Source of the DNA: Nitrospira sp. BO4
GTDB lineage: Bacteria > Nitrospirota > Nitrospiria > Nitrospirales > Nitrospiraceae
Direction of reading: 5' to 3'
DNA: 64,000 bases
Assembly (NCBI GenBank): GCA_030144965.1
Contig: JAMPUU010000021.1
Location: 1-64,000 of the forward strand
Part shown: piece by piece, positions 4,959-54,387 of the stretch
Layout: every line of letters starts with the position of its first letter
Position numbering within the stretch: position 1 is the first letter of the stretch
The notes under the pieces: generated by a model
Seen by the model: only the letters and a program-made list of their open reading frames with translations
Told to the model about the DNA's origin: nothing
Databases searched by the model: none
Translations under genes and position numbers: made by a program

Positions 4959-5013
4959 TGAAATGGTGAGCCGGCTGGGACTCGAACCCAGGGCCCTCGC
5001 CTTAAAAGGGCGA
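4959..5013 (-). repeat. attL: partial tRNA-Lys copy, 55-bp direct repeat
   Basis: The same 55 bases occur at 54333-54387. They include the T-arm, variable loop, the 3' side of the anticodon arm and the anticodon, but the D-arm and 5' acceptor strand are absent here, so this copy is not a functional tRNA. Identity stops abruptly after the GGGCGA of the anticodon stem. Confidence 0.9.
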
Positions 5014-8876: not shown

Positions 8877-11800
8877 GTCTCAACGGCTCAGGGATCAAGA
8901 CGCGCGAGATGCCATTGTTCAGCACCTCGATGTGAATATGTTGATCGAAGCCAGTGCCGGTTCAGGCAAGACGGAGAGCCTCGCGATGCGGATGGCCGCC
9001 GGCATCTCAGCGGGCATCTATACGGTCGAGCACATGGCCGCCGTCACATTCACTCGCAAGGCAGCCGCCGAGCTCCGCGGCCGCTTTCAGCTGCATCTTG
9101 AAAGGGCTCTCACCAAGGCAGCGGACCCTCAGACCCGGGCGCGGCTCGACGAGGCCCTCAGCCGACTGGAACATCTCTTTGCCGGAACCTTTCATGCCTT
9201 TTGTGCCCAGCTCATTCAAGAACGTCCAGTCGAGGCCGGTGTGTCGCCAGGGTTCAGCCAGTTGGAAGAGGGTGAGGATGCCCGCCTACGACAACAGCTG
9301 TGGCGCCAATTTATTGAAGAGGAGCGCTCTTCGCAGTCTCCGAACTACGAGGCCGTGCTCCACGCAGGATTGACGCCGACCGACTTGGATGACGCCTTAA
9401 GTCGTCTCTGTACGTTCCCGGATGTTACATTCCCCCCGGGTGAGGCGGTTGTCCCAGACGCTGCACCGCTGCGCCGGGCGTTTGAAGACTTTTGGGGTCG
9501 GCTATCCGTATTGGTGCCCGATGACATCCCTGATGCACCCGACTGCGCCCTGCTCGCTCTGATTCAATCGGTGCGTCAGAACCTCCTTGTCATGGATCTC
9601 CAGGACCCCCGTGAGGTGGCAACGCTCCTCAATCGGTGGGAGAAGCCGCCGACCATGACACAAAAATACTGGCCGGGAACGCCTGGCGAACGAAAGGCGC
9701 TCAAAAGCAGGCTGGAGGCCATGATTGAACCTTTCGTCACAGGCGTCGTCCACCCCTTTCTGCAAGCGTGGCGGCAGTATGTGTATCGTATTTCGCTCGA
9801 GCTCCTCCTGAAAGGCCGCGCCTATGTCGTTGAACGGCGCCGCCGGGCGCTGATGCTGAATTATGAAGATCTGCTCCAGGTCGTGGCGAAGCTCCTTCGG
9901 GCACGCTCAGACGTGCGGCAGGACCTTCAGGAAAAATATTGCTGGCTCTTCGTCGATGAATTTCAGGATACGGATCCTCTTCAGGCGGAAATCCTTCTGT
10001 TACTGGCCTGCGAACCCGCATCCGAGATAAACGACTGGACCTCCGTTACCTTGCGACCAGGAGGGCTATTCATCGTCGGCGATCCCAAGCAGTCGATTTA
10101 CCGGTTTCGCCGGGCGGACATCGACACGTATCAACGAGTCAGGCATCGGATCCGCACGACGGGCGGCGAGGTAGTGTCGTTAACCGCTTCGTTCCGCTCG
10201 ACTGGTAGCTTGTGCGACTGGACCAATGAGGTCTTTCAACGCGTTCTGCCCCATGAAGCAACCCCGCAACAACCGGCGTTCGAGGGCCTGTACCCCGCCT
10301 CATCCGAAGCCGCGAGCGGCCCCCACGTCGTCAAGCTCACCTCACCGGCAACGATGGGTGAGTCACAGATTGTTAGTTCAGAAGCGGCGACCATCGCCGC
10401 CTATATTCAGGCGGAAATCGATGCCGGACGTCGGCAACCAGGCGATTTCCTTGTGTTGACCCGAAAAAGGCGCGCGTTGGAACGCTACGCAGCTGCTTTA
10501 GAGGCCGTCAATCTTCCTGTCGAGGTGAGCGGCGGTTCCACTGTGTCAGAGTCCCCCTATGTGGGCGTGTTCTTGTTGCTCCTGCGCGTGTCGTCGGATC
10601 CCGACGACGGCCCGGCCGTCATCGGGGTGTTGCGGGGACCATTATTCGGCATCAGCGATGTAGAGCTGTTTTCACACCGACAGGCCGGCGGTTGCTTTCT
10701 GTTAACCGCGCCGCTTCCTGAGCAGGCACTTACGCCGGTGCAGACAGCCCTTGGAGTGCTGCGTCAAATGTACCACTGGACAAGAACGCTGCCGGCCGGC
10801 GCGGCTTTGGATTGCATTCTCGAAAGGACGGGCTTGCTGGCGCTTGCGATGACGCACAGTCCATGCGGAGCGGAGGCTGCTGCCCTGCTTCAGGCAGTGG
10901 ACGGTGTCCGGATGAGTACCGAACGGGGCGACAGTCTCGCCACCGCTACTGCGTTACTGGAAGACGCGGTCGGTGAACGCTCGATCGAGACGTTGCCCCT
11001 GGAGCCTGGACTGAGCAATGTCGTGCGGGTCATGAACCTCCATAAAGCAAAAGGTCTTGAGGCGCCGGTGGTGTTCTTGGCCGATCCACTGGGCGGCGTC
11101 AAGCCGACGGTCGATCTTCGCATCACACGAGATCAAGAATCGATCGGCTATCTGAAGCTTACTCGCCCCAAGGGCGAGTGGGCCCGCGAAGTCATCGGCC
11201 TTCCTCCAGGCTGGGATGCCCATGAGGCGGCAGAGCAGGCCTACGTCGAGGCGGAGGAAGACCGTCTCTTGTACGTCGCCTGTACTCGTGCCAAAGAGCG
11301 GCTGATCGTCAGTCGGTGGGCGAAAGACGGCGGCCGCGGCAGCCGGCCCTGGGGGAAACTGGAACCTTTCCTGCTACAAGCACCTGAGTTAGAGCTTCCA
11401 TCCAATAGAAGGACGGCAAACGGTCGCGCCTTTGAGCTTGACGTCAGCCTAGCGCGCGCGGCAACGCACCTTCGTGAAGAACGCCATGAAGCGGTAAAGA
11501 AGCCTTCCTATCAGGTCGCTTCAGTGACTGCCATCTCGTCACCCGGAGGAATGCGATCAGAATCCTTGGAGACGGGCCCCGCGACGGGAGTGGCTTGGGG
11601 AACGCTCATTCATGCGCTCCTCGAACAACTGGCGCGTCAACCCGGCCTAAGTACGCATGACCTTACGAACCGGGCTCGCTGGCACAGTAGAGACAATGAG
11701 GAGCTGTTAACTGTCGTCCCGCAGGCCATAGAGACGATTGAAAGAATCCGCAATTCCGACTTTTGGAGGGAAGTTCAAAGTGCAACCGTTCGACTAGCCG

Positions 11801-12069
11801 AGGTTCCGTTCTCTATCAAGCCGAATGACGGACCTACTCCTACCATCTTATCTGGTGTCATCGACCTCTTGTATCGAACGGAGCGCGGCTGGCATGTCGT
11901 GGATTACAAGACAGATCAACTCTCGCTCGATGAGCTTGCCGCGTCTTATCGAGAGCAATGTCAGGCGTATGCAACGCAATGGGCCTCCATTGTAGGCGAG
12001 CCCGTTGCTTATGCAGGTCTCTACAGTATTCGGCTAGTACAACTATCCCCGAATCTTGTGCAAATCTAG
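8869..12069 (+). CDS. AddA-like UvrD/RecB-family helicase-nuclease
   Basis: A 1066-residue SF1A helicase with all key motifs: Walker A EASAGSGKTE (about residue 27), TFTRKAAAELRGR, AGTFHAFC, Walker B LFVDEFQDTDPLQAE (about 360), GDPKQSIYRFRRAD (about 403), LTASFRS, VMNLHKAKGLEAPVVF (about 720) and YVACTRAKERLIVS (about 802). The C-terminal nuclease domain has GTLIHALLEQ, SGVIDLLYR and VVDYKTDQL (about 1010). This is the catalytic partner of the preceding AddB-like protein. The gene is about the normal AddA length and seems intact. After its stop there are 130 bases without a gene. Confidence 0.88.
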   Translation: MPKSQRLRDQDARDAIVQHLDVNMLIEASAGSGKTESLAMRMAAGISAGIYTVEHMAAVTFTRKAAAELRGRFQLHLERALTKAADPQTRARLDEALSRLEHLFAGTFHAFCAQLIQERPVEAGVSPGFSQLEEGEDARLRQQLWRQFIEEERSSQSPNYEAVLHAGLTPTDLDDALSRLCTFPDVTFPPGEAVVPDAAPLRRAFEDFWGRLSVLVPDDIPDAPDCALLALIQSVRQNLLVMDLQDPREVATLLNRWEKPPTMTQKYWPGTPGERKALKSRLEAMIEPFVTGVVHPFLQAWRQYVYRISLELLLKGRAYVVERRRRALMLNYEDLLQVVAKLLRARSDVRQDLQEKYCWLFVDEFQDTDPLQAEILLLLACEPASEINDWTSVTLRPGGLFIVGDPKQSIYRFRRADIDTYQRVRHRIRTTGGEVVSLTASFRSTGSLCDWTNEVFQRVLPHEATPQQPAFEGLYPASSEAASGPHVVKLTSPATMGESQIVSSEAATIAAYIQAEIDAGRRQPGDFLVLTRKRRALERYAAALEAVNLPVEVSGGSTVSESPYVGVFLLLLRVSSDPDDGPAVIGVLRGPLFGISDVELFSHRQAGGCFLLTAPLPEQALTPVQTALGVLRQMYHWTRTLPAGAALDCILERTGLLALAMTHSPCGAEAAALLQAVDGVRMSTERGDSLATATALLEDAVGERSIETLPLEPGLSNVVRVMNLHKAKGLEAPVVFLADPLGGVKPTVDLRITRDQESIGYLKLTRPKGEWAREVIGLPPGWDAHEAAEQAYVEAEEDRLLYVACTRAKERLIVSRWAKDGGRGSRPWGKLEPFLLQAPELELPSNRRTANGRAFELDVSLARAATHLREERHEAVKKPSYQVASVTAISSPGGMRSESLETGPATGVAWGTLIHALLEQLARQPGLSTHDLTNRARWHSRDNEELLTVVPQAIETIERIRNSDFWREVQSATVRLAEVPFSIKPNDGPTPTILSGVIDLLYRTERGWHVVDYKTDQLSLDELAASYREQCQAYATQWASIVGEPVAYAGLYSIRLVQLSPNLVQI

Positions 12070-12538: not shown

Positions 12539-12793
12539 ATCGCAGAAGCAATTATTCGCCCTTGGTCAAGGTCGAGCTGAAAAGATCCGAGCCGGAGATC
12601 CCCTTAGTCCGCATAATACGGAGTCATCTTGCCGCGGAAAGAGATCCCAATCGGAGAATGAATTATTTCAGGCGATCGTCGCTTGTGCTTGCATTTAAGG
12701 TCTTAGCTCCGACGGTGCTTGTCCATGCCGTCAACCAAGAGTGACGGCTATTTATCAGGACTATTGAGGAGCTTTCTACAGGCCGGAGGGAAC

Positions 12794-14119
12794 ATGGATA
12801 ATCGCCACCTCAACTTATTTTACACTTACAATACCCATCACCTAGAAGATAACGTTACGAGAGCCCTAATAATTACCCTCAAACATCTCTCTCCTACCCA
12901 CCTACGCCTATTCTTCAGGGACGTTCTACTCGGGAAGGCACCACAATGCAGCCTTCGCGACCGTATAGCCATTTTAAGCGAGCCAGTATTCGACTTCGAT
13001 GTGCAGATACAGCCGCCGGAAGAAGATGACAAGCTCACTGAGATCAATGGTGTTCTGATCGGGATCAATTATTCGGCTCAACAGAGTCTGCGGTTCGATG
13101 CAACCACCAACAAGGACAAGGCTAGACCAGATGCATTACTTTCTGACATTTCCAATCAGGTGACAGCAATAATTGAAACGAAGCTGGACGATGGCTTGTA
13201 CCAAGAACAACTACATCGCCATTTCGCTAACTGGTTCAAGAGTGGCACCGCGACCTTGGATAAGGTATTTACCGAGGTATCATGGACGCGGATCGCTGAA
13301 TTTTTAAACCTGGTTGCAAGGCAAAGTTCGAGTGAGAAGGAGAAGTACTTCGCAACGGAGTTTGTGCAGTACCTGGATCTGCTGGGCGTAGTGGACTTTT
13401 GGGGGTTCCAAACCACGGACTTTGTTCACGAGCAGCTAAACGAAAATAAATTAAACAAGTTCATGTCGAAGCTGACTAATGTCGTCGGAGTCCGCTTGGG
13501 GCTTAAACCCTATGAAGGGGACTGGAAACTGTATTTTCCAGATGTGCCCAACGAAAACGTGTGGTTTGAGTTATCTGCCGATGGGATAAACTTCGGAATT
13601 GTTCTGGGAAGCGGAAAGTTTTGGCGGGCTCAAGCTCTCCGCAACTATATTCTCCGTCATCCTGCGGAGTTTCGCCAGATCTTGGAGCAGCTGCGTTGCA
13701 ACATTAACCGAACATATCAAATATGGTTACGGATACATGCCAATTTCCGGCATAGTCGGTTTCGCACCGGATGGCTTGGCGATATTCGTGGCATCAAAAC
13801 GTTTCCAGATGAGTTCGATCAATTTATAGAGGTGTTATCGGACGAGAGCATCAACGCTTTCCGCCAGATGCCAAAAGTAGAGATTCAGGAACGGTTTAAA
13901 GAAGAAATTCGCAGCAGTCCACAAACCCGGCTCGATGAACAGGGGCGTTTCCCCCACTGGCCGGACATCGACAGCTTTCTTCAGTACACTTACTTTCACA
14001 TTGATGTCCACATCCCATCCTCTGCTCTGATCGGAGAATCGTTCGATACTCTGTGCCAGCTTTTCGAGCCGATTCTCTCCGCTCAACACCAACTCATGCG
14101 TAACCTTTCGAAGCACTGA
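12794..14119 (+). CDS. Putative PD-(D/E)XK-superfamily protein
   Basis: A 441-residue protein. The start at 12794 (MDNRHLNLFYTYNTHHLEDN) is chosen because GGAGGG lies four bases before it; the open frame extends 25 codons upstream without a binding site. Residues about 108-135 read RPDALLSDISNQVTAIIETK followed by YQEQLHRHF, matching the D-(X)n-ExK pattern of PD-(D/E)XK nucleases with a conserved Q/H helix. The N-terminal ENHLT-like theme (HHLEDNVTRALIITLKHL) also occurs in such proteins from defence islands. The rest is alpha/beta without motifs I recognise. This gene is visibly richer in A+T than its neighbours, consistent with separate acquisition. Confidence 0.5.
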   Translation: MDNRHLNLFYTYNTHHLEDNVTRALIITLKHLSPTHLRLFFRDVLLGKAPQCSLRDRIAILSEPVFDFDVQIQPPEEDDKLTEINGVLIGINYSAQQSLRFDATTNKDKARPDALLSDISNQVTAIIETKLDDGLYQEQLHRHFANWFKSGTATLDKVFTEVSWTRIAEFLNLVARQSSSEKEKYFATEFVQYLDLLGVVDFWGFQTTDFVHEQLNENKLNKFMSKLTNVVGVRLGLKPYEGDWKLYFPDVPNENVWFELSADGINFGIVLGSGKFWRAQALRNYILRHPAEFRQILEQLRCNINRTYQIWLRIHANFRHSRFRTGWLGDIRGIKTFPDEFDQFIEVLSDESINAFRQMPKVEIQERFKEEIRSSPQTRLDEQGRFPHWPDIDSFLQYTYFHIDVHIPSSALIGESFDTLCQLFEPILSAQHQLMRNLSKH

Positions 14120-14294: not shown

Positions 14295-15455
14295 ATGATC
14301 AATGTTATGCCGACGCATAGCGCACCGTTCATCATCGAACCGTACATGAAGCCCAACACGATTCGTTCGCCGCTTGGGTTCATGTCGCAGGCGACGTATT
14401 GGGCGCAGTTACTTTTCCCAGGCGTAACGGTTCTGACACGGCATTTTCTGCATGTGCAGCTGCTTCTACGTGAGCTGCGACGGAAGAGCAGGACCACCGA
14501 GTCGCGGCAGGAGATTGAAAAGGTATTGCGTTCGCAGACCGTGCATCGACGTCTTGAGCGGGAATACAAAGCAGCTGTCGGAATCGAGAACGATCTCGTC
14601 ATCACGAAGATGACCTATTGGCAGCGCTATGCCTCGATGTTTGAATACTTCGGGCTGTGGAAGGCGCCTCGTACCCTGAGACCAAGAGAATTGTGGCAGA
14701 TCGTGTTCTATAGCCGGGTGCCCAGGCAATTTCGGAAATGGGTCAAGCCAGAAGCGCCCGAGAAACGTCGCCGGCGAATTGCCCATACGCTTTGGTACTT
14801 GCGATTCAAGCCGGACCTAGAGGATGCACACGGACAGCCCCAGCGAATCCCATGGTGGGTTACTGGTGAAGGTTGTCCTCGGGATGTAAGTGTGGAGATT
14901 CGGCTTAGCCGTCGGGTCTCATACGCGTTTCTCATCTGGCAAACCCTCTTTGAAGTTGGCATAAAGCTTAGGTGCCGTGGCACCGCTTTACCTAAGGCCT
15001 CGAATCGGATGTTCAATGCGTGGGAGACGGTGGAATTGCTCGAGCTCGCCACGCAAGATCCAGAGCCAAGCACTGATACCTTGAAGCGAGTCTTCAGCGG
15101 TCTGCTTTCTGCGCATGCTCACCAGCTCCAGCCTTCGATGCCGACTTGGCAGACTGTGGTTGAGCGTCAGCCTTGGCATGAGTCCTCCCTGACAAGACTC
15201 TACGACGGGAGCTCCGTAAGAGACCTAGCGGCGGTACAGGCGGCATCGCTGTTCGCAAGACTAGTCCATCTGCACCAATATTACTGCGAAAGACAGGGTA
15301 AGACGGATGCAGAGTTTATCCGTGCGAACGCCAACGGTTTCACTGCACTCAAATCGCCGAAGATCAGTGCTCAGTTTCAAGGAACGCCCTGGGGCCTGTT
15401 CGGATACAGGCTTGACCAAGCCGTGGCGCTCTACCGCTCCGGTGCACCGCCATGA
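14295..15455 (+). CDS. Unknown protein, first gene of a coupled PLD/helicase cassette
   Basis: A 386-residue basic, Trp-rich protein with no family I recognise. The first start is ATG at 14295; an in-frame ATG at 14307 (MPTHSAPFIIEP) is equally plausible, and neither has a strong ribosome binding site. The 3' end overlaps the PLD gene by four bases (ATGA), and that gene overlaps the helicase gene in the same way, so the three products are probably made in fixed ratio and work together. In cassettes of this kind the leading gene is often the sensor or specificity subunit, but that is inference. The 175 bases before it hold a weak promoter-like GATAAT and nothing else. Confidence 0.6.
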   Translation: MINVMPTHSAPFIIEPYMKPNTIRSPLGFMSQATYWAQLLFPGVTVLTRHFLHVQLLLRELRRKSRTTESRQEIEKVLRSQTVHRRLEREYKAAVGIENDLVITKMTYWQRYASMFEYFGLWKAPRTLRPRELWQIVFYSRVPRQFRKWVKPEAPEKRRRRIAHTLWYLRFKPDLEDAHGQPQRIPWWVTGEGCPRDVSVEIRLSRRVSYAFLIWQTLFEVGIKLRCRGTALPKASNRMFNAWETVELLELATQDPEPSTDTLKRVFSGLLSAHAHQLQPSMPTWQTVVERQPWHESSLTRLYDGSSVRDLAAVQAASLFARLVHLHQYYCERQGKTDAEFIRANANGFTALKSPKISAQFQGTPWGLFGYRLDQAVALYRSGAPP

Positions 15456-17185
15456 GCGCCAATACCCTCGCCAGGCTGTGGCTCTCCCGTGGCTTTGCGC
15501 CTGACCGGCTTCTATTTGTGACGTTCGAGTTCAATTTCCGAGATTTCCACGATCAGGTCCTGCGCAGGCTTCTGGAGAATGCGGGTGGCCGCATACCGTA
15601 TGTGGATGTAATTGCATCTCGCGTAGACCTCGAGGAGGAGTCGGATTGCTTTGACTTCCGATATCTCGCTCCCTTCGGGAATCATTTTCGCCTCTTTCGT
15701 TGCAATTCTTTCCCGGTTGCTCATGCCAAGGGAATTATCGCGCGTGACAGCCGAACTGGCAGGACACTCTCGGGTATCGGCTCGGCAAATCTAACGCCGA
15801 GCGGCTGGCGGAGAAATATCGAGATGTGGTCATGGGATACCGGCCAGTCGACCTCCAGCATCATACAGATGTGTGAGGCACTGGGGCACACAAATGGAAT
15901 CGCCGTCGGCTTAGTGGCAGAGTGGCGAAAATCTTTCAGTGTCAAAAAGGTAGCCTCTTCCGTTTTTGTCCTTGGCGGATCCCACGCTCCAAGCTTCGAA
16001 AACGTGGTTGATCGCTTGACTACAATTGTCCCGCGACCGCGAGTGGTGCGCGTCGCATCGCCGTACTTTGATCCTCATTCAAATGAACTATTCTCGCGCA
16101 TATTCCTAAAGACCGGACGATGCAGACTGGAGATTTGGACCGACAGATCAGGTAGGCTGGCAGAGCCGACGCACTGGCGCGTACTTTCAAAAACGCTACC
16201 CAAGCTCGCCAAAAAGTTCGGTGATGTACAGGTATTAGCGCCGCCGCGCGAGATACCGTGGCATGCCAAAGTCATTGAACTTGATGATGGCCATGGCAAT
16301 ATAGCGCGCGCGTATGGATCGGCTAACTTCACCGGCGCCGGTTGGGGTGTAAGGCATCGCGGGAATCTCGAACTTGTCGCCATAGTCGCTTCGAGGGCTG
16401 GACTACCTGATCTTCTTGATGCCAGAAAGATCAAAATGACGGCCGTGGGGAAGGCCGAGCGGAAGCGTCTAACCCGGCAAGAAGATCACGAGCAGATTCG
16501 CCGAGCGAAAGGCCCAGAGCTGCTTTGGGCTTGCTTGGTCGAGAAGCCGAATGCACAAGTACTAGCGCGCCTGGCACGACCTGAAAAGTTAACCTGGTGG
16601 CGCCTCCATGCCGAGTTCGACGAGAGCCGACCGGATGACGAGCGAGAAAGGCTCAAGAAAGTTCGACAGTTTGTATCGGAACGTGCAAGGTGGCAACTTC
16701 GACAATCTGGATGCCACATCGTTCTCGACTGGATGGGAGACGAGTTCACAGCTTGTGAACGCATGACGCTCAAGATAAAAACGGCTTCGGGGTCGTGTTC
16801 TGCGCCTGTCTGGGTTCCCGAGCCCGACTGGTCAAAGCGAGATAGGGCAACAGGTATCCCGATCGCACCGCAATCCGATGAATGGTCAATTGATGCGTTC
16901 CTGCGCGGGCAGCGCCCTATCGTGGGCTTGCGCCGCAAAGACCGGGATTTGGAGCAAGATGAGGAGATATCCGCGGAGCTGAACACGGCCCCCGAGCCAC
17001 CGATGTGGATAGAACATCCTGACTATGATCACGAGCCTGAACTAGTGCTCATCGCCAGGCGTTTCCGCGACTCACCCGCGGCGGTGAAGGATATGAAGCA
17101 GCGGCTTGAGATTATCGCGCGCAAGGGGCGACCCAAAGACCGGTTGCTGGCGAATGTCATCTTAACTACTTCAGAAAACAAATGA
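15452..17185 (+). CDS. Phospholipase-D-like nuclease with two HKD motifs
   Basis: A 577-residue protein with two PLD catalytic half-sites. The first is VAHAKGIIARD...GIGSANLTPSGW (about residues 89-115), an H.K...GS.N motif. The second is WHAKVIEL...AYGSANFTGAGWG (about 269-297). Two half-sites normally form one active site for phosphodiester cleavage, and PLD proteins next to helicases are recurrent in bacterial antiphage modules such as DISARM (DrmC). The C-terminal third (from about residue 330) is basic and unassigned. It overlaps both neighbours by 4 bases. No signal peptide is visible, so a cytoplasmic nuclease role is more likely than lipid hydrolysis. Confidence 0.8.
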   Translation: MSANTLARLWLSRGFAPDRLLFVTFEFNFRDFHDQVLRRLLENAGGRIPYVDVIASRVDLEEESDCFDFRYLAPFGNHFRLFRCNSFPVAHAKGIIARDSRTGRTLSGIGSANLTPSGWRRNIEMWSWDTGQSTSSIIQMCEALGHTNGIAVGLVAEWRKSFSVKKVASSVFVLGGSHAPSFENVVDRLTTIVPRPRVVRVASPYFDPHSNELFSRIFLKTGRCRLEIWTDRSGRLAEPTHWRVLSKTLPKLAKKFGDVQVLAPPREIPWHAKVIELDDGHGNIARAYGSANFTGAGWGVRHRGNLELVAIVASRAGLPDLLDARKIKMTAVGKAERKRLTRQEDHEQIRRAKGPELLWACLVEKPNAQVLARLARPEKLTWWRLHAEFDESRPDDERERLKKVRQFVSERARWQLRQSGCHIVLDWMGDEFTACERMTLKIKTASGSCSAPVWVPEPDWSKRDRATGIPIAPQSDEWSIDAFLRGQRPIVGLRRKDRDLEQDEEISAELNTAPEPPMWIEHPDYDHEPELVLIARRFRDSPAAVKDMKQRLEIIARKGRPKDRLLANVILTTSENK

Positions 17186-19650
17186 GCAGAGGCCCGGCAT
17201 ACGTCGCAGGCGGCAAATTGATTCGCAACCGGCAGCTGATCCGCTGTCAGGACCGTACCATCAAGCATGCTTGGGAGCGCATCAGAAGCAATGGCAATCG
17301 TTCATTCTTAATAGCGGATGCTGTCGGGCGCGGAAAATCGTACATGGCGCTAGGCGTCGCCATGGGCTTTTGGCGACTGGCCGGTAAAACAACTTTCCGC
17401 ATCGTGATAATCGCTCCTACACAGGAACTTTCAAGCGCCTGGATGAAGAAGCTTGCCGACGGACACGAAACCAGCCCCTTCTCAGATGTCGTTAGGATAG
17501 TTGAAGGACGCAGTCGTGGACACCAGGACTACTTCGCTGCTTACGTGAAGGAGTTTCGCAAGCAGCGCGCGTTGGCTGCCATTTTCTCCGTTCGTACGCG
17601 GCGTGAAGCGCGACGCCTCCAGCATGCGCTTAAGTCCCAGGAGCTGAGCAGCCGCTTCAAACAAACCCGTGGTGCAAGACGTATCGAGGTGCTGATAACG
17701 AGCCCTCGATTCCTCACCAAGACCACCGAGTCGCTTCAGTGGCGACGATGGGCCGGCAGCGCAGATCTCGTGATCGCAGACGAGGCTTATGGTATGCGAA
17801 ACGATTTGACTGCCTATGGCCGGCTTATGCGCCCTATGCGAAAAAAAAGGGGGGTCTTTCGGCGCTGCCCCTGGTTGATCGCATTGTCTGCGACGCTGCT
17901 TTCCAAGGATATGCGTGACACGCTGGGCGTTCTTTCGGCTCTGCTGGAATGGGGCTCAAGGCGAAACGTCCTGACGCGCTTGGAGAAGGTACGCGCTGCG
18001 TGTTCCAGGTACAATCAAGCCCTCAATAAGGCACTCGCATCTTCGAATCGCAGGTCTGTCGGCTACACAGCGGCATCGAATACGCTCGCTAGACTGCTTC
18101 GGCGCTATATGAGCAGGATGCCGGCGGTAAAGAACCGGTCCTATGAGACGTGGCTTACGCATCAAAATTCCTACGATGCTCCGGCGGGCCGATCAGTACG
18201 TAATTTCCCGTTTCCTAAAGCCGATATCGACTATGACGGCGTGTCCAGGTCACTCGATAACGAAACGCTACAGGCAGACTTGGCGCATTTTCTGAGGGCA
18301 ATATCTCGCAACGGTCATCTAGCCAATACGAAAACGAGACAGTCCTACCTTCGACTCACGGAGATAGATGCTTCTAATCCCGGGGCATGGCCAAAGCCCG
18401 ATGCACTCAAGAAATGGATGTCCGAACACATCCAAGCTCTCTGGAAGTACAACCGTGACGAGCCTAGCTTCAAGGTCGTTGTCTACTGCCACCATGTCAG
18501 TACTGCGAGAACGTTGGCACTGCAGGGAAAAGACTCTCTGTCGGATTCGGTAAAAAAGGCTGTGCGCAAAGCTTGGCAAAATCTCGCTTCACGCGAAAGT
18601 GCCTTATTCTCAGGTTTCTACACGAAGCGTAAACCCGTTCTAGAAGAGGCGCTGCGCAAAGCTGGTCTCGGGGCGGCATTCCTAGACAAGCTACCTCGAA
18701 GGAATGCAACGCTCTTGGTTTCCGCCCTCTTGAATGCACGTCGAGAGACATCGGCACGGCGAAAAGCAGCAGCACTTGTACGCACTCTCAAGGCCGCGCG
18801 ACAACCAGAGAAGGATTCGCCGGTCCTCGGCCTCCTGCAAAGAAATATTGAAGTACGAGTAGCCATCTTGGAGGCGCTTGCCTGCAAGAGACTGGCTCGT
18901 TGGAGTTCCTCCTTGTCGGTTGCCGATAAGAAAGAGCGTGCTCTAGCATGGTTCGTCTTCAATAATTTGCGGGTTCGAGGAATACTTGAAAGCGTGCAAG
19001 TCAATGCTGATGTCGAAGAGATGGCCAGAAAGATCGGTCCGCTCAAAGCGGTCGATGCTAAGACACTTGCTGAACTGGTAGTGAACGCACTTTCCGAAGA
19101 CCGACGTGTGCGAGCGCTCCTGCGTCGCTGGAACCGCAAAATGAGTGTCCTCAGACAGGCAAAGGACCACGAAGACTTAGATCGCAGTGTGGGACACCGA
19201 ACCAAGCTCGTCGAAGTTCTCACTGGTGACAACCCAGACCGACGAGTGGCTGTATCTCAGGATTTCCTGACAGCTGGGAACCCATTCCTACTAATCCTCA
19301 CGAACGTATGCGCAATGGGTGTCGATCTGCATCATTATTGTTGGGATGTCATTCACTACTCCCCCAGTTGGACACCGAGCGAGTTTGAACAAAAGTCAGG
19401 TCGAATTGATCGCCCGAGACCACGAGTTCTTAGGCGTGCGTTAAATATCGGAGAGGAGCGGCGCTCCAGCGCCATCCGCATACACCATCTCATTTGGCCA
19501 TTCACGTATGATGAGCGCGTTCTGCGACGAATGAACATCCGAGGCCATCTCTCTGAACGTCTCCTTAGTTCAAGGAGAATGAGCGATCCGGATGATAAGA
19601 CCGCAGAACTTTTTAAGCGGCTTCCGCCATTGTCCCTGTCGCCAAAGTGA
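17182..19650 (+). CDS. SF2 (SNF2/DEAD-like) helicase
   Basis: An 822-residue superfamily 2 helicase. Motifs: I in ADAVGRGKSYMALG (about residue 44-57), Ia IVIIAPTQELSSAW, II VIADEAYGMRND (about 197-208, DEAY instead of DEAD/DEAH), III ALSATLLS (about 235), V TNVCAMGVDLHHYCWDVIHY (about 714) and VI FEQKSGRIDRPRPR (about 736-749). The QxxGRxxR arginine finger appears as QKSGRIDRP. A long helical insertion of about 250 residues lies between the two RecA lobes (residues about 430-680). It is the last gene of the three-gene coupled cassette. I infer ATP-driven DNA translocation that feeds or controls the PLD nuclease. Confidence 0.8.
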   Translation: MSRGPAYVAGGKLIRNRQLIRCQDRTIKHAWERIRSNGNRSFLIADAVGRGKSYMALGVAMGFWRLAGKTTFRIVIIAPTQELSSAWMKKLADGHETSPFSDVVRIVEGRSRGHQDYFAAYVKEFRKQRALAAIFSVRTRREARRLQHALKSQELSSRFKQTRGARRIEVLITSPRFLTKTTESLQWRRWAGSADLVIADEAYGMRNDLTAYGRLMRPMRKKRGVFRRCPWLIALSATLLSKDMRDTLGVLSALLEWGSRRNVLTRLEKVRAACSRYNQALNKALASSNRRSVGYTAASNTLARLLRRYMSRMPAVKNRSYETWLTHQNSYDAPAGRSVRNFPFPKADIDYDGVSRSLDNETLQADLAHFLRAISRNGHLANTKTRQSYLRLTEIDASNPGAWPKPDALKKWMSEHIQALWKYNRDEPSFKVVVYCHHVSTARTLALQGKDSLSDSVKKAVRKAWQNLASRESALFSGFYTKRKPVLEEALRKAGLGAAFLDKLPRRNATLLVSALLNARRETSARRKAAALVRTLKAARQPEKDSPVLGLLQRNIEVRVAILEALACKRLARWSSSLSVADKKERALAWFVFNNLRVRGILESVQVNADVEEMARKIGPLKAVDAKTLAELVVNALSEDRRVRALLRRWNRKMSVLRQAKDHEDLDRSVGHRTKLVEVLTGDNPDRRVAVSQDFLTAGNPFLLILTNVCAMGVDLHHYCWDVIHYSPSWTPSEFEQKSGRIDRPRPRVLRRALNIGEERRSSAIRIHHLIWPFTYDERVLRRMNIRGHLSERLLSSRRMSDPDDKTAELFKRLPPLSLSPK

Positions 19651-20795: not shown

Positions 20796-21965
20796 TCAAG
20801 AAATGGAGAATGTCCCCCCTTTTTCTGTTTCGCTCGCAGGCACAATGGCGGGCAACCCGTCGACGCGTGCCAACACCGTCAGGGGCGTCGGCACAAGGCT
20901 CCCATCTGGGCGCCTTCGGAGCCCGACGAGCCGAACGCGGTCGCCCCTAGAAACTGCCGTCACCTCTGGGTGGATGTTGGGATTCAGCGGCGCGAGCTGC
21001 ACACGTTTCCTTTCCTCGCTTCCGTTTTGAACATTGACAGTCAACGACGTGGCAGCTCCCCCGTGAATAGCGCGCGGTGGTTCATCGAGCACTCCATCGA
21101 CAACTGCCCCATCAAGCTTGCCAGACCAATCGGGGCTCACTGCGGACCAAAGTGGCGTACACACTAGCTTGAACGAGCACCACTTGCACGTCGTCGCCGA
21201 TGGATCAGCCAGTTGCTCCGGCAATGCGCGGGCAGTAATATTGGAGTTGTAGTCGTCGAGAACCGCGACCGCTTCAACGGCTTCGCGCATGCACTCTTTC
21301 GGCTCCAGTGGCACTTCGACACCGGCACCCGCAAAGGGTAACAGCACCCCGCGCGTAGGCCACCATCCAAGCACCTCTTTCACGAGGAAACCGTAGATCC
21401 GGAGCTGCCGGACATAGGCAGCCTTCACAACATCAGACTGGGAGCTTTCGTCATATTCAAAGATCGCGCCGCTCTTATAGTCGACGACCTCCCTGTGTCG
21501 GATGAGATCCGGCCTCCCGACGAGCTTTCCACCAACAGCCACGAACTGACGTTCTCGAATGGTGCCAGCGTCACCTGACCCGGTTGCACCCAATGCTGTT
21601 CCACCCGCCGAGACTTCGCGTGCCCGCAGGAGAGCACTCGCTCGAACGAGATGATAGCCTGGCCACGTTTCCGGCGAACCGAATCGTCGATTAAGCTGAT
21701 GGGCGGCGGCGCGCTGGTGTTGCGCGTCGACCGCTCTGTCCCAGAATTGCACCGCGGCTGCTTCGACATCGACTATCGACTCCAGGCAGGCGAACTTCTC
21801 GAGCACCTCGTGATACGCGGTGCCTAGCCACGCTTTTGGATTCCCAAGCACGTAGCCTGCGCTCCCGGTAGCACGCAAGAGCCCGGCGCGGAGTCGGCAC
21901 GCCCGCATCGTCTCCGCCAGAGTTGGACTCGTCGACGGGATGACGGGAAGTACCAGCTGGCTCAC
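20796..21965 (-). CDS. RecB/Cas4-like PD-(D/E)XK nuclease with Fe-S cysteines
   Basis: A 389-residue protein, last gene of the five-gene operon. The start is a GTG two bases after the stop of the DUF1998 helicase, with CGGAGG upstream; longer open frame to the right is shadow of the helicase gene. Motifs: GTAYHEVLEKF (about residues 60-70, the RecB H), KLVGRPDLIRHREVVDYKSG (about 148-167, D...DYK) and CKWCSFKLVC (about 258-267), which with another cysteine would ligate 4Fe-4S as in Cas4/AddB nucleases. The C-terminal about 100 residues look beta-rich (SRGDRVRLVGLRR), perhaps an OB-type nucleic-acid-binding domain. It likely supplies DNA cleavage to the complex. I know of no such gene in the defined Druantia gene sets. 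Confidence 0.75.
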   Translation of the reverse strand: MSQLVLPVIPSTSPTLAETMRACRLRAGLLRATGSAGYVLGNPKAWLGTAYHEVLEKFACLESIVDVEAAAVQFWDRAVDAQHQRAAAHQLNRRFGSPETWPGYHLVRASALLRAREVSAGGTALGATGSGDAGTIRERQFVAVGGKLVGRPDLIRHREVVDYKSGAIFEYDESSQSDVVKAAYVRQLRIYGFLVKEVLGWWPTRGVLLPFAGAGVEVPLEPKECMREAVEAVAVLDDYNSNITARALPEQLADPSATTCKWCSFKLVCTPLWSAVSPDWSGKLDGAVVDGVLDEPPRAIHGGAATSLTVNVQNGSEERKRVQLAPLNPNIHPEVTAVSRGDRVRLVGLRRRPDGSLVPTPLTVLARVDGLPAIVPASETEKGGTFSIS

Positions 21966-21967
21966 GA

Positions 21968-24900
21968 CTAAAATGGCCTCCGGAGCACCTCGAAGATAGA
22001 CTTCATGGTGACCTGGCAACCCGCCGCCACCGCTTGCGCGTAAGCGGCTGCGAGCTGTGGGCCGACGAAGTTGGGATCCGTGTTCCAGAGCGGATGAGTG
22101 ACGATCTCGACCTGGTTTCCACGCCGTCCCGCCTGGAGGCCACCGAACAGGACCGGCTGCCAGCCAGGCATCGCGGCGAAGTAAGGGCCTGCGGCCGCCG
22201 CGTCGAGGCCCTGCCAGTAGGGGACGGAGAAATCGATCGGCGCCGCTGGATCGAGCGCCAAGCGCGCGAGATCCAGACCCAGCCGCCAATCGAGAATGTT
22301 GTGGTACGCGAGGTTGCTGAAGTCGCGGAGGCAGTCCGGGCAGGATGTCCTGCACAGCGATCCGTGCAACGGGTTCCCCTGCGGATCCTGTTGAGCGACG
22401 AGTGGGCCATAGAATGTGTTGCTGGTCTGTCCCACAATGAAGCGCAGCAGGCTCTCGGCCTCGGCGGGCGTCCCGAAGTACGAGCTGTACCCGGCGCCGT
22501 TCTCCAGGCTGTCCGAGATGAAGATCTGGCCGATGACCTGCCCGTTCGGATCCTGCATCACCCGCAGGCCGACCTTCAGCTCGCGTTCATGAATGTCGAG
22601 TCGAACAGCAGCGGCTCGACGGAGCAGGAACCCGAGCGAGTAGAGTCCAGCCCGACCCTCAACCCGAAGCGGTACGGCGTTGACGCCTACTGGCCAGGTC
22701 TGGATTCCAAGGACAAGAACGTCCGTCGGCTTTACGGAAGCGAGCGCGCGTCGGTCTGGGGCACCTCCCGGAGCAAGAGGTGGATTGTTCACGTCGACCT
22801 TCGCGAGCGCGTCACGCGTCACCCAAGTCTCGCCCTGCGCGAGCTTCTCGAAGTCGAACAGCTGGCCCTCATTGTCGTTGATCACGTAGACGGTGTCTTG
22901 ACCACTCCAGATCTCCAAGTTCGCGACGGGCGTCATCCCGATCGGCATTACGCCCACCTTTGGGCGCGACGCGCGAGCGGTCCACTCGAACACGCCGTCG
23001 AAGTCGCGACTTGCGCCGAACCAGGTGCGGAACCCCCGCGGCTGCGAGAGCACCACCTGTTCGTAGTCCGGCGGTGCCGCTCCGCAGACCGGACACGTCT
23101 GAGCGGGGTTCTGAGATCCGTCTACCGCCTGGCATCGCCGGCAGAGTCCGATCGGCAGCGGTGGGCCGAGCGGGTTTGGTTGCTCCACAACCGCGTTTCC
23201 CTGCGGCTGATAGTCGACGACGCCGACCGCCGTGTGGATGACGCCGTCCTTCACCGTCTCCGATGACGGAGCAAACTGGCTGATCGCGATGTCGAGTTCG
23301 CGATCGACGACCCCATCGGGTGGCCACTCGTAGGCTCCTCCCGGCCTCTCATGGAAAAGGTAGCGAACTCGCGTCGGGAATCCGAACATCGGCAGCACTC
23401 CGACGTTCGCGAGGCGCTCGCTCAACGACCTCTGTGGCAAGCGGGGATCGACGGAGGCCGCGGTCACTCGCGGAACGAGTTGCGTTTGGACGTAGGTGAT
23501 CAGCGCCGCCCTTTGGGCCTGCAGTTGCGGCGTCGTGAACGAAAGCAGCACGTCGCACGTGTGCGCGATGGCAGCTTGATTGTTTTGGATCCAGTCATCG
23601 ACCAGCTGCGCGACCGTCAGGCCCGGCGGTGTGCCGGGTGGCGGCTGAGCAGGCGCAGTGCCCCAGTCAGCTGCGTCTCCGAATTCGCCGTGCACGCTGT
23701 CGCCGCCCTGCGCTGCGAATAGACCCAGCGCCGCGAAGGCTTGCCGCAGGACCTCCTTCGCGAGCACGCGCTGGAGAATCGCCTCCCGGCGCATGTCCAC
23801 GTATGGCTGCGGCGGAGGATCCGACGTGATCCGATCTGGCCGCTGGAAGTAGTAGTCATCATGGCTTCGCCCGCGGCACAGCGTGAGCGCGACCGACAGA
23901 CCGGCTCCTCGCCGTCCCGCGCGACCAACGCGCTGCTGGTAGTTGAAGCGCATCGGCGGCATGTTCGCCATCATGACGGCGAGCAAGGAGCCGATATCCA
24001 CACCGGCCTCCATCGTCGTTGTAACGCTGAGGAGATCAATCGGATCGGTGACCTGAATCTCGTCAGGGGGAGGGAGGCAGATGTCCTGGAAGAGTCGCTG
24101 GCGCTTGCGGCCGTCGTTCTTGTTCGTCTGCCCGGTAAGCTCCTCGCAGTTGAGCCGAAACAGAGGCCCTGCGTGTGTCGCCAAGTAGCTGTAGTAGTCG
24201 CGCGTGGCTTGGGCAGCCGCCAGGGGCTGCGGCGGGCCAAGGGGAATGTGGCAATCCGTGCAGACGCCTCCCGCCGCGTGCAGGTGGACCCGGCGGCATT
24301 GACCGCATTCGAAGTATGCTGTTCCCGGCCGCGCGAGGCACAAATTCTGGGCGACAAGGACGTGCTGTGTAAGCACACTCGCGCTGTTGAGATAGTTCAG
24401 CACGTCGGCGGCGAAAGTTGACGGTGTGAAGCCATGCAGCTGCGCGACCGCGGCCAGGTACTGAGCGACGTAGGCGGGAGGATTCGGTTGGCTGGCGGCT
24501 CCGTGTGTCGAGAGCCGGCGCCGCGCACCGAGCAACCGAATAGTTCCATCGGCGGCCTCTTGAACAAGGGCGCTTAGCGCTGGCATGGCGATGCGATCGG
24601 TAGTTGCGAATGCGAGCCGCAGTGACTCGAGGCTGCGGCGGCCTGAAGCGAAGACGACATCCATCACTTCCTGCAGCGATTGGTCCTGAATCCTCCGGAG
24701 GTGATCGCGCTGCTGCTGGCTGAGCTGCGCAGCCGGTCTCGCTTGCGGAATGGTTCCGGCCACGCCCCAGGTGTAGAGATCTCGCCAGCTGCCTTCCCTT
24801 GTTCGCGGAGCAGTCCAGAGAACATCCTGGGTGAAGCCGCCGGGATTCACTCCGTTGGCGAGTAGCTGCGCTGAGGCGTCGGCCGAGAGCTGGCCGATGT

Positions 24901-30659: not shown

Positions 30660-30698
30660 AGGTGTGATCTTTTATTCAAGCCAGTATTGCTTCTTTGC

Positions 30699-33647: not shown

Positions 33648-33696
33648 CCTGCTCCTCGCCTCCTTATATTATTTCTCACCGCGATGAATCGAGTCG

Positions 33697-35078: not shown

Positions 35079-35100
35079 GGAGGTTAGGTTCCTCGAGGGT

Positions 35101-35325
35101 TCAGCAGGGATACTTTCCGAGTTTACGATCCAGCTCTTGTTTGTCCAATTGATTACGCATGTGTTGCAGATCCAACCATTGCTGCCGTTGCCGGAAGTAG
35201 TCGAACTGTTGAGTGCTCCCACGTGGCGCTTGCATATTACCTTTTGAGTCGTACAAGCTCCCTCCCCCTACTGCCGTACCTGTCATCACGCTTCCGATGA
35301 GGATGCCAAAGATAAAGTGTTTCAT
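35101..35325 (-). CDS. Small putative secreted protein
   Basis: A 74-residue protein starting at MKHFIFGILIGSVMTGTAVG after GGAGGTCCA, with an N-terminal hydrophobic signal or anchor and a Gln-rich C-terminal half (DYFRQRQQWLDLQHMRNQLD). The mid-part SLYDSKGNMQ resembles the LYDQQGNYRG segment of the neighbouring NPFG-repeat protein, so the two are probably related or functionally linked. No known function. Confidence 0.6.
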   Translation of the reverse strand: MKHFIFGILIGSVMTGTAVGGGSLYDSKGNMQAPRGSTQQFDYFRQRQQWLDLQHMRNQLDKQELDRKLGKYPC

Positions 35326-35348
35326 TGGACCTCCGATGTGATGTGTTT

Positions 35349-35780: not shown

Positions 35781-35940
35781 AGCCACCTCCGGTTGAGAAC
35801 GTAGCCCTCATTTTAATGGTGGAGCGTGACAAGCAAGGTCCCGAGACAACCGGGAGCGGATTTAGCAATAATCCTTGGAGGAACCGCCAGCTAGAAGGAC
35901 TTGCGGGCCGGAGCCCTCATGGAAGTCGTGACATCCGAGG

Positions 35941-38134: not shown

Positions 38135-38986
38135 ATGGACATGCAGGCGGTCTGGTGGAAGCCTCGAGATGTGTTTATTAGCGACACAACTTTTCATCCC
38201 CGTCCTCCGTTCGAACCATACAATCCCTTCGTGCATTACCACCCGCACACCCTCAAGCAGACGACACGGTCTACAAAATCGCTCTACTACCAGTTCCTTC
38301 AAGTAGACCCTGAAGATCAAAAGGCCATTGCTAAATTCTGCTGTGACTATGGAATGCTGGGTCGTCTCGATAATGCTGGTTGGATCATGTGGGGGATGGA
38401 GAAACCCGGATTCGCTGACTCTCTCCATATTATGGGCTTGAACGAGCCATCACCGTTTGGACTCCTTTATGAACAAGATATGAGAGGAACAATGCTCCGC
38501 CAGATTGCGGGAATTCCCCCGGACCCATCACTCTGTATACCCATGGAATGGGACGATTTCAGGAAGGTACAAGGTCAGCTTCGCGAGGCTACAGAGTGGG
38601 CATCGACCATGGCGAGCAAGCGAAAACCTAAGGAGAAGGGAAAAGCTCAAACAGCCCTCCACCAGAGATTGCGCTGGAAACTATCAATGGTACGCCCCAA
38701 TGTCTCGAGGGATAACAAGAAGGCAAAATGGCGCTTTACCTGGGACATTGGTTCACTCGAGGCAGCCTTCTACCTGATGCTGCTCTCGGACGTATGTGGT
38801 GGCGGTCAGATACGTAACTGCGAGTTATGCGGAACGTTTTTTCTAGGCATTACCAGTCGCGGGCGGTTCTGCTCAAATCGCTGCCTCAATACATTTAAAG
38901 TTCGGCGTTTCAGAGCCAAGCGTAAACAACGCATGTCAAAACAACCTGCCAGTAAGGAGGTGCTCGATGGCTCGTCAGGACGGTAG
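38135..38986 (+). CDS. Zinc-finger hypothetical protein coupled to integrase
   Basis: A 283-residue protein whose C-terminus has a CGNR-like zinc motif: NCELCGTFFLGITSRGRFCS followed by NRCLNTFKVRRFRAKRK (about residues 227-263), i.e. two CxxC/CxxxC pairs and a basic tail. This is typical of DUF/CGNR proteins that bind nucleic acid. The N-terminal 200 residues are unassigned. It overlaps the integrase gene by 20 bases, so the two are co-expressed. Confidence 0.65.
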   Translation: MDMQAVWWKPRDVFISDTTFHPRPPFEPYNPFVHYHPHTLKQTTRSTKSLYYQFLQVDPEDQKAIAKFCCDYGMLGRLDNAGWIMWGMEKPGFADSLHIMGLNEPSPFGLLYEQDMRGTMLRQIAGIPPDPSLCIPMEWDDFRKVQGQLREATEWASTMASKRKPKEKGKAQTALHQRLRWKLSMVRPNVSRDNKKAKWRFTWDIGSLEAAFYLMLLSDVCGGGQIRNCELCGTFFLGITSRGRFCSNRCLNTFKVRRFRAKRKQRMSKQPASKEVLDGSSGR

Positions 38987-40088
38987 AGATCGTGGCGTGG
39001 TTTTCAAGAATGGGACTTGGTGGGTCCGTTTCTATAACGAAGGCAAGGAAGTCTGGCGGAAATGCGACAACAAGTCTCAGGCGCGCAGCCTCTACGGCAA
39101 ATTCAAAGCGCAAATCCGGGAAGAGAAATACTTTCCGAAGGCTAAGAAACGCGAGCCGCTGTTATTCAAGGCTGTCGGGAAAGACTATGAGGCATCACTA
39201 AACAGGGATGGGCGTCGTCCTGGTGATAACCACGCCAGGATTGAGTTTTGGGTCGATCGATTCGGCAAACTGGATATCGAGGCCATTACGACATCCCAGA
39301 TTGAGCAAGCCTTGTCGCATCTGCGGGCTCCGCTCATCGAGCGATCCGGCCGGCTGGCAAAGGGGACTAAACGGTCGATCGAGACGGCTCGTCGATATTA
39401 TGTCGTGCTCCATGCCATTCTGGAGAGAGCCAGGAAGCGATTGAAGGAAGAGAAAGTCCTCATGATCAACCCCGCCTCAGACATTATGTTGAAAAAGGCG
39501 GATAACACATTGGTCCGGTATCTGACACCAGACCAGAAACAAGCCCTGTTCGATGCTCTGCCCGCCCGATATCATCCCATCGTACTGACCGCCCTCAATA
39601 CAGGTATGCGCCGTGGAGAGCTTTTACGTTTGACCTGGGCTGATGTGGATTGGTTCGCCGGGACGATCAAGATCCGCCAAACGAAAACCGATGAACCGCG
39701 CCACGCCCCCATGAACAGCGTGGTGCAACGAGAATTGCTGGCGCTCAAGAATAAGACAAACCCCTCCCTATCCGACCCGGTGTTTCCCTTTTACCCTCGG
39801 TATCTTAGTCGGGCCTTTCAACGCGCCGTTATCAAAGCACAGCTTGCGCCGTTCAGATTCCATGACTTGAGGCACTGTTTTGCCAGCAGTCTCGCGAGGC
39901 TAGGTGCCAACGATAGGACTCTTATGGAAGCCGGTGGATGGGCATCCCCTGCCATGCTGAAACGCTACGTCCACCTTGGACCCTCTACTGTTTGGCAGGC
40001 AGTGGAGAAGCTGGCTGAATTATCACCCTTGAATAAGAACGATAATAAGCTGTTTCTCAAGGAAGAAGAGGTAAAGTTAAACCAATGA
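38967..40088 (+). CDS. Tyrosine recombinase / integrase
   Basis: A 373-residue phage-type integrase. It has an N-terminal arm-binding-like region (VFKNGTWWVRFYNEGKEVWR), a core-binding SAM-like domain (about 60-170) and a catalytic domain with R in TALNTGMRRGELLRLTW (about 215), K in IKIRQTKTDEPR (about 238), HxLRH as FHDLRHCFASSL (about 295-306), H/W in MEAGGWAS and the nucleophile in LKRYVHL (about 332). GGAGG is well placed before the ATG. It is the only intact integrase in the island, but lies about 34 kb from the left att and 14 kb from the right, with no visible att repeat beside it. Confidence 0.9.
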   Translation: MARQDGRDRGVVFKNGTWWVRFYNEGKEVWRKCDNKSQARSLYGKFKAQIREEKYFPKAKKREPLLFKAVGKDYEASLNRDGRRPGDNHARIEFWVDRFGKLDIEAITTSQIEQALSHLRAPLIERSGRLAKGTKRSIETARRYYVVLHAILERARKRLKEEKVLMINPASDIMLKKADNTLVRYLTPDQKQALFDALPARYHPIVLTALNTGMRRGELLRLTWADVDWFAGTIKIRQTKTDEPRHAPMNSVVQRELLALKNKTNPSLSDPVFPFYPRYLSRAFQRAVIKAQLAPFRFHDLRHCFASSLARLGANDRTLMEAGGWASPAMLKRYVHLGPSTVWQAVEKLAELSPLNKNDNKLFLKEEEVKLNQ

Positions 40089-54332: not shown

Positions 54333-54387
54333 TGAAATGGTGAGCCGGCTGGGACTCGAACCCAGGGCCCTCGCCTTAAAAGGGCGA
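54333..54387 (-). repeat. attR: 55-bp direct repeat within tRNA-Lys
   Basis: Identical to 4959-5013. It runs from five bases beyond the encoded CCA to the anticodon stem of the intact tRNA gene. Confidence 0.9.

What the first reader, a model, noticed from the sequence alone, without database searches (positions are those of the whole stretch)
14295..19650. Coupled three-gene cassette: unknown protein, PLD nuclease, SF2 helicase
All three genes overlap by exactly four bases (ATGA), so they are one translational unit. PLD-helicase pairs occur in DISARM and Mokosh, but the helicase here is SF2 with a DEAY box and a long inter-lobe insertion, no DUF1998 or methylase belongs to this unit, and the leading 386-residue protein is unrecognised. 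It faces the DruE-like operon across a graveyard of broken genes. It could be a separate, undescribed defence module.
Basis: partly seen in the sequence, partly recalled or inferred. Interest (0 to 1): 0.7.

Follow-up and report, generated by a model that had tools for sequence, protein, structure and literature searches.

The report
Divergent three-gene helicase–nuclease defence cassette
Three tightly coupled bacterial genes in a mobile island look like a very divergent relative of two catalogued but apparently untested anti-phage gene sets, in which a helical protein of unknown function, a PLD-type nuclease and a DNA helicase are encoded in that order.

Summary
The trio is real: 386-, 577- and 822-aa genes with two ATGA overlaps, PLD nuclease and SF2 helicase confirmed. 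It is not without relatives. The PLD protein and the helicase find PADLOC's ZacB/ZacC and PDC-M27B/PDC-M27C best. Both of those systems have the same order: unknown protein, PLD, helicase. ZacA is Pfam DUF6361. The leading protein matches no library, but its residues 21-86 carry the DUF6361 N-terminal block (D/S-x-LG … LFPG): rank 1 of 10,001 (itself plus 10,000 shuffles; 18.4 vs 9.8 bits). The rest of it is unrecognisable; three other tests of it failed. Helicase trees place it beside PDC-M27C (support 99 and 86). The same family of genomes holds PDC-M27-like cassettes in two genomes, one next to Zorya, and unnamed linking cassettes in three more. The trio lies in a 49-kb island between a 55-bp tRNA-Lys repeat; the same-species genome has different DNA at that site. 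Most likely it is a new divergent variant of the Zac/PDC-M27 kind, acting by helicase-guided PLD cleavage of invading DNA. Function and mechanism are inferred.

The parts
14295..15455 (+). gene 1 (386 aa): leading protein, divergent relative of ZacA/DUF6361 by its N-terminal block only
   Evidence: ORF; no Pfam, PADLOC or NCBIfam match; rank 1 of 10,001 against ZacA N-terminal block profile
14355..14552 (+). N-terminal block of gene 1 (residues 21-86): IRSPLG...LLFPG motif shared with ZacA, PDC-M27A-like and two unnamed first proteins
15452..17185 (+). gene 2 (577 aa): PLD-family nuclease with two HxK...GSxN motifs in one chain
   Evidence: PLDc_2 6.3e-9; ZacB 3.5e-12, PDC-M27B 5.4e-11; hhalign to PDC-M27B-type alignment prob 95.7, E 1e-8, 287 columns
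15722..15790 (+). first PLD motif of gene 2: H91-x-K93 ... GSAN113
   Evidence: conserved columns H91, K93, S111, N113 in A9
16262..16327 (+). second PLD motif of gene 2: H271-x-K273-x4-D278 ... GSAN292
17182..19650 (+). gene 3 (822 aa): SF2/SNF2-like helicase, relative of ZacC and PDC-M27C
   Evidence: rank 1 of 3,156 against a PDC-M27C-type profile, E 8.4e-27, above all 52 ZacC; trees
17326..17340 (+). Walker A of gene 3 (GRGKS, residues 49-53)
   Evidence: alignments
17779..17790 (+). Walker B/DEAY box of gene 3 (residues 200-203)
   Evidence: alignments
19390..19413 (+). helicase motif VI of gene 3 (QKSGRIDR, residues 737-744)
   Evidence: alignments
4959..5013 (.). left att-like repeat: fragment of tRNA-Lys, island boundary
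   Evidence: 55 bp identical to 54333-54387; sequence read
54333..54387 (.). right att-like repeat inside tRNA-Lys (tRNA 54338-54413, - strand): other island boundary
38967..40088 (+). phage-type integrase inside the island
   Evidence: Phage_integrase 1.2e-27

Best explanation
The trio is a highly divergent variant of the three-gene 'DUF6361-type protein / PLD nuclease / SF2 helicase' kind that PADLOC lists as Zac and PDC-M27. Its helicase is closest to PDC-M27C. It is a cargo module of a tRNA-Lys integrative island and probably acts against incoming DNA. Proposed mechanism (inferred): gene 1, by analogy with the all-helical ZacA model, is the recognition or adaptor subunit and keeps a conserved N-terminal block that may dock to the other two. 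Gene 3 translocates on or opens DNA with ATP. Gene 2, whose two HxK motifs in one chain can make one PLD active site, cuts that DNA. No methylase belongs to the unit, so self/non-self choice would come from DNA structure, ends or infection state rather than a methyl mark. Shown here: gene order, coupling, domain identity, kinship of genes 2 and 3, kinship of the gene 1 N-terminal block, island context. Inferred: complex formation, substrate, cleavage, defence.
For: PADLOC best hits: gene 2 ZacB 3.5e-12 and PDC-M27B 5.4e-11; gene 3 ZacC 5.8e-19 and PDC-M27C 9.6e-18. Full ZacABC in the same phylum. Gene order A-B-C on one strand in 36 of 47 fetched genome loci; 5 more hold B and C, 1 holds C only, and 5 are unrelated helicases. 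Each window protein ranks first of 3,104 decoys for its Zac counterpart: E 0.086, 7.4e-8 and 3.6e-18. Gene 1 block: rank 1 of 10,001 and rank 1 of 4,104, E 3.7e-4. Five of five phmmer hits of gene 1 with E<=1 among 2,051 ORFs are ZacA proteins. Helicase trees: gene 3 with PDC-M27C, support 99 and 86. PDC-M27-like cassettes in same-genus genomes G186 and G057, the latter beside a ZorD gene. Linking cassettes in G373 and G223/G387. Island boundaries and absence from the same-species genome G332.
Against: Gene 1 is recognised only over about 65 residues. Its best end-free PSSM alignment to ZacA scored below most decoys. A full-length PDC-M27A+G223 profile ranks it 240 of 10,001, and the C-terminal part of ZacA does not find it. 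hhalign to three ZacA or three M27A proteins is insignificant. The AlphaFold model of gene 1 is poor, pLDDT 46.8. The window branch in the helicase trees is very long, so its placement may be an artefact. No close homologue of the trio was found in any collection searched. No functional test exists for this trio, and I found no paper on Zac or PDC-M27.
Confidence: 0.62

Rival explanations
1. A separate defence module that converged on the PLD + SF2 helicase pairing; gene 1 is unrelated to ZacA and the short block is coincidence.
For: Gene 1 matches no family; similarity limited to residues 21-86; negative full-length and C-terminal tests; poor model.
Against: Block score 18.4 against 9.8 bits for the best of 10,000 shuffles, in the protein that sits in the expected place; gene 2 and gene 3 independently find the same two systems; linking cassettes in the same family of genomes.
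Confidence: 0.2
2. A restriction-type or DISARM-like unit whose methylase is supplied by a neighbouring gene, such as the 5-methylcytosine methylase of the facing Druantia-like operon.
For: Gene 2 has weak DrmC hits (7e-7) and gene 3 weak DrmD hits (1e-8); a C5 methylase lies at 30699-32357.
Against: No methylase, DrmA or DrmB in the unit; the methylase belongs to the Druantia-like operon on the other strand; gene 3 does not group with the DrmD sequences in either tree.
Confidence: 0.06
3. An abortive system: the PLD protein attacks host nucleic acid or membrane when the helicase and gene 1 sense infection.
For: Same anatomy would allow it; nothing computed here excludes it.
Against: Both PLD motifs resemble nuclease-type HxK...GSxN motifs and a Pfam neighbour is a restriction enzyme domain (RE_NgoFVII, E 0.26, below its cut-off); no toxin-like or membrane part was recognised.
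Confidence: 0.1
4. A non-defence DNA-repair unit, or a decayed relic.
For: It lies near an AddAB-like helicase-nuclease pair; extreme divergence.
Against: Catalytic motifs intact in three intact coupled ORFs; patchy occurrence (1 of 98 relatives for gene 1, 1 of 395 phylum genomes for gene 2, the own genome included); inside an island absent from a same-species genome.
Confidence: 0.08

Closest known systems
PDC-M27 (PADLOC candidate system, models PDLC04551-PDLC04556)
   Same: Gene order unknown protein / PLD / SF2 helicase; gene 3 groups with PDC-M27C; gene 2 aligns to PDC-M27B-type proteins over 287 columns.
   Different: Scores are far below genuine members: gene 3 61.9 bits and gene 2 39.8 bits against 1287 and 805 bits for the Rhodoferax cassette; gene 1 does not match PDC-M27A models or a three-sequence profile.
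Zac (PADLOC ZacA/ZacB/ZacC, PDLC03828-PDLC03830; ZacA = Pfam DUF6361)
   Same: Same order and coupling; DUF6361 N-terminal block in gene 1; two PLD motifs; helicase motifs I-VI.
   Different: No ZacA or DUF6361 model hit; DEAY instead of the DEFQ seen in most Zac helicases aligned; helicase shorter (822 aa, against 985-1,194 aa for most Zac helicases in the loci).
Unnamed cassettes of G373 (L121) and G223/G387 (L139, L140)
   Same: Same architecture and the first-protein block; gene 3 finds their helicases at 3.6e-16 and 2.3e-15, gene 2 finds the L139 PLD protein at 8.7e-6.
   Different: First proteins are 650 and 458 aa; helicases lie on other branches.
DISARM (DrmC PLD, DrmD helicase)
   Same: Contains a PLD protein and an SNF2-like helicase; weak hits.
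   Different: No DrmA, DrmB or methylase in the unit; gene 3 not with the DrmD sequences in the trees.
Mokosh
   Same: Helicase and PLD-type nuclease.
   Different: No Mokosh model among the PADLOC hits of genes 2 and 3 at E<=1.

Membership tests
Zac | ZacA gene recognised by PDLC03828 / Pfam DUF6361 | tested here: not met
   No hit at E<=1; only the N-terminal block is recognised by my own profile
Zac | ZacB-type PLD protein | tested here: inconclusive
   ZacB is the best PADLOC hit, 44 bits, against 588 and 241 bits for two genuine ones
Zac | ZacC-type helicase | tested here: inconclusive
   ZacC best PADLOC hit, 66 bits; both trees put gene 3 with PDC-M27C instead
Zac | Order A-B-C on one strand, coupled | tested here: met
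   relatives
PDC-M27 | PDC-M27A first protein | tested here: not met
   No hit to PDLC04551/04552; three-sequence M27A profile does not list gene 1
PDC-M27 | PDC-M27B PLD protein | tested here: inconclusive
   39.8 bits; hhalign E 1e-8 over the double PLD region; own 3-sequence profile E 0.01
PDC-M27 | PDC-M27C helicase | tested here: inconclusive
   61.9 bits to PDLC04556; rank 1 of 3,156, above all 52 ZacC; tree support 99 and 86; but far below genuine members
DISARM | DrmA/DUF1998, DrmB and a methylase with the PLD and helicase genes | tested here: not met
   None in the three genes
Mokosh | PADLOC Mokosh models | tested here: not met
   Not among hits at E<=1
Anti-phage function (any) | Protection in a phage challenge | not testable with these tools
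   needs experiment

The most novel reading that the evidence does not exclude
Zac, PDC-M27, the G373 and G223 cassettes and this trio are branches of one ancient immune superfamily with a fixed three-part plan. Its PLD and helicase are conserved, while the first protein diversifies so fast that only a short N-terminal LG...PG block survives, as expected of a docking segment on a trigger-recognition subunit. The window trio is a further, unmodelled branch.
Probability: 0.5. Interest if true: 0.58.

Novelty: new variant of a known kind. Interest (0 to 1): 0.46.

Why it matters
It shows that two candidate systems listed apart (Zac and PDC-M27) and several unlisted cassettes share one plan, and that current models miss divergent members because the first protein evolves fast. 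It gives a concrete handle: test whether the short N-terminal block of the first protein is what joins it to the PLD-helicase pair, and whether the rest of that protein sets the trigger. It would also help annotation: DUF6361 proteins would be filed as parts of a helicase-nuclease defence set.

Tried and rejected
Close homologues of the trio: none for gene 1 in 97 relatives besides the own genome, none for gene 2 in 394 other phylum genomes, none in plasmids at E 0.01, 1e-5 and 1e-3, none in viral contigs.

Permissive plasmid searches: the gene 3 hits that I could see are mostly motif pieces of Zac, DISARM and other helicases (30 of 687 records were listed); the gene 1 hits (two Neisseria gonorrhoeae records, E 0.1) fall in an unrelated gene and were dropped. 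The two Vibrio nigripulchritudo hits of the M27A search were listed but not fetched.

ZacB family search: 24 of 295 genomes, but only 3 genomes (4 of 26 rows) have a long match; the other rows match short stretches around one PLD motif and were not used.

Negative tests of gene 1 against ZacA/M27A: end-free PSSM alignment, full-length M27A+G223 profile and ZacA C-terminal part, hhalign. AlphaFold of gene 1 with ZacA rows was uninformative. The ZacA model itself is good (pLDDT 88.1), but neither Foldseek (no match at E<=0.001) nor VIA-align (best Z 3.6) gave a clear PDB relative; absence there proves nothing.

PDB sequence searches with genes 2 and 3: no match. PDC-M27B family search in 198 genomes: nothing at 1e-15, and no control rang.

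Literature: searches found no paper that describes Zac, PDC-M27 or DUF6361 (one search returned unrelated words beginning with 'zac').

Five of the 47 loci (L081, L086, L089, L090, L091) proved to be unrelated SNF2 helicases; they served as outgroups.
Full report
OBSERVATION. Shuffled sequence of the same stretch gives no frame longer than 295 aa in 200 trials. Gene 2 has PLD domains and gene 3 helicase domains; gene 1 has no Pfam, PADLOC or NCBIfam match at E<=1.

CONTEXT. A 55-bp fragment of tRNA-Lys at 4959-5013 repeats exactly at 54333-54387, inside the intact tRNA-Lys gene 54338-54413. A genome of the same species (G332) matches the window at 98-99% on both sides: up to position 4509, and from 54338 on. 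Between those points it carries about 55 kb of other DNA and none of the trio. So the trio is cargo of a roughly 49-kb island at a hotspot. The island also holds a Druantia-like operon, a phage-type integrase (38967-40088), a WYL regulator and an AddAB-like pair (5820-12069). G+C is 0.50-0.57 across the trio and 0.64-0.66 across most of the Druantia helicase, which suggests separate acquisitions.

RELATIVES OF GENES 2 AND 3. PADLOC's best hits are ZacB (3.5e-12) and PDC-M27B (5.4e-11) for gene 2, and ZacC (5.8e-19) and PDC-M27C (9.6e-18) for gene 3. Searching the phylum with ZacB gave full Zac cassettes in G175 and G111 and a contig-edge copy in G137. Their first protein is ZacA, which is Pfam DUF6361. 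Zac cassettes also occur on plasmids of Alphaproteobacteria, Bacteroidota and Archaea among others. The one genome-contig scan gave 47 loci. In 36 of 47, A, B and C lie in order on one strand; 5 have B and C without a full A, 1 has C only, and 5 are unrelated SNF2 helicases.

In the same family as the window genome, gene 3 finds 12 of 175 genomes at E<=1e-7, the own genome included. I fetched the surroundings of 7 of the other 11: G186, G373, G057, G050, G018, G223 and G387; G175 was already held; G404, G449 and G419 were not looked at. Two cassettes (G186, G057) are PDC-M27-like: their first proteins match PDC-M27A at 3.2e-21 and 2.2e-18, and the G186 helicase matches PDC-M27C at 5.6e-83. The G057 one follows a ZorD gene (1415 bits to a ZorD model). 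G373 holds a cassette whose first protein (650 aa) is hit by the ZacA profile (9.1e-5) and by gene 1 (0.013). G223 and G387 hold another, whose first protein (458 aa) is hit by the M27A profile (2e-6) and the ZacA profile (0.012), whose PLD protein is hit by gene 2 (8.7e-6) and whose helicase is hit by gene 3 (2.3e-15). G050 and G018 have other helicase loci, no cassette. A Rhodoferax plasmid carries a genuine PDC-M27 (605, 805 and 1287 bits) after a WYL gene.

A profile from three PDC-M27C-type helicases ranks gene 3 first of 3,156 sequences, above all 52 ZacC (8.4e-27). Trees of helicases place gene 3 with PDC-M27C, with support 99 on 448 columns and 33 sequences and 86 on 380 columns and 24 sequences with G223 added. 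The window branch is very long in both, so this is a lead rather than proof. Gene 2 aligns to a three-sequence PDC-M27B-type alignment over 287 columns (E 1e-8), but not significantly to three ZacB. With the larger ZacB set it is first of 3,104 at 7.4e-8.

GENE 1. All five phmmer hits of gene 1 with E<=1 among 2,051 ORFs of the 47 loci are ZacA proteins, though each is individually weak, E 0.19-0.98 (ZacA identity, ORF count). It ranks first of 3,104 decoys for a 45-sequence ZacA profile, E 0.086, aligned at residues 21-70. Limited to the N-terminal block, the profile ranks it first of 10,001 (itself plus 10,000 shuffles), 18.4 against 9.8 bits. A block profile with ZacA, G373 and two M27A-like rows gives E 3.7e-4, first of 4,104, the next being 0.31. 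The shared motif reads roughly D/S-x-LG, about 13 residues, then hydrophobic-hydrophobic-x-(P)G. Against this, an end-free PSSM alignment to ZacA was no better than decoys, the ZacA C-terminal part and full-length M27A+G223 profiles do not find gene 1, a three-sequence M27A profile does not list it, and its AlphaFold model is poor (pLDDT 46.8). So I claim kinship for the block and for the place in the cassette, not for the whole protein.

MECHANISM. Established knowledge of the families: PLD enzymes form one active site from two HxK motifs; SF2 helicases move on nucleic acid with ATP. Gene 2 carries both HxK...GSxN motifs (H91/K93/N113; H271/K273/D278/N292) and gene 3 motifs I, II, III and VI. 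The ZacA model is confident and almost wholly helical with no clear PDB relative. The inferred picture is a helicase-guided PLD nuclease acting on invading DNA, with the first protein as recognition or adaptor subunit. For the facing Druantia operon, recent work on Druantia III (PMC13192584; abstract and passages seen) describes a helicase-nuclease that engages ssDNA-containing intermediates; the window's operon matches models of other types, and I use this only as analogy. Nothing here shows complex formation, substrate or defence.

KNOWN OR NEW. PDCs are unpublished or mostly unvalidated candidates found by 'guilt by embedding' (PMC12988326, passages seen; PMC11811056, passages seen). I found no paper on Zac, PDC-M27 or DUF6361 in the held library, so I cannot say what evidence lies behind the Zac name. 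The trio fails the first-gene model of both systems and scores far below genuine members on the others. I therefore do not file it as Zac or PDC-M27; it is a new variant of that kind.

Noticed in passing
window 4959-54387; G332:C1 about 2537103-2592643 (L103-L105): tRNA-Lys island hotspot: the window has a 49-kb island, while a same-species genome has about 55 kb of different DNA at the same site with further tRNA-Lys fragments.
   Followed up: partly
window 40501-48527: Two very large adjacent genes on the - strand (1446 and 1228 aa, sharing one base) with no Pfam or PADLOC match at the thresholds used.
   Followed up: partly
window 12719-14119: 466-aa gene just upstream of the trio, no Pfam or PADLOC match; by eye it has a D...ExK pattern like PD-(D/E)XK nucleases.
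   Followed up: partly
window 5820-12069; L129 478-6314; L124 10107-15884; L042 and L095 upstream of ZacA: UvrD-type helicase genes, some paired with an AddB-like nuclease, recur beside these cassettes or related helicases: window AddAB-like pair, similar-sized pairs in G057 and G018, annotated UvrD genes directly upstream of ZacA on two plasmids.
   Followed up: no
window 20796-32357: Druantia-like operon with mixed subtype matches: DruE4/DruE2, DruK-, DruL4/DruF2- and DruM2-like genes, plus a 725-aa gene without Pfam or PADLOC match.
   Followed up: partly
L129 6909-9605 to L122 222-3974 (G057): Genes of ZorA/ZorB-like size (by recall) lead into a ZorD gene (1415 bits) directly before the PDC-M27-like cassette.
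   Followed up: partly
window 33168-36924: Cluster of a PTP-like phosphatase, N-formylglutamate amidohydrolase, HD-domain protein and WYL regulator inside the island.
   Followed up: no
window 48765-49146 and 49454-49835: 382-bp direct repeat at 90.6% identity.
   Followed up: no
L121 2916-4868: The G373 first protein has about 150 extra N-terminal residues before the shared block; function unknown.
   Followed up: no
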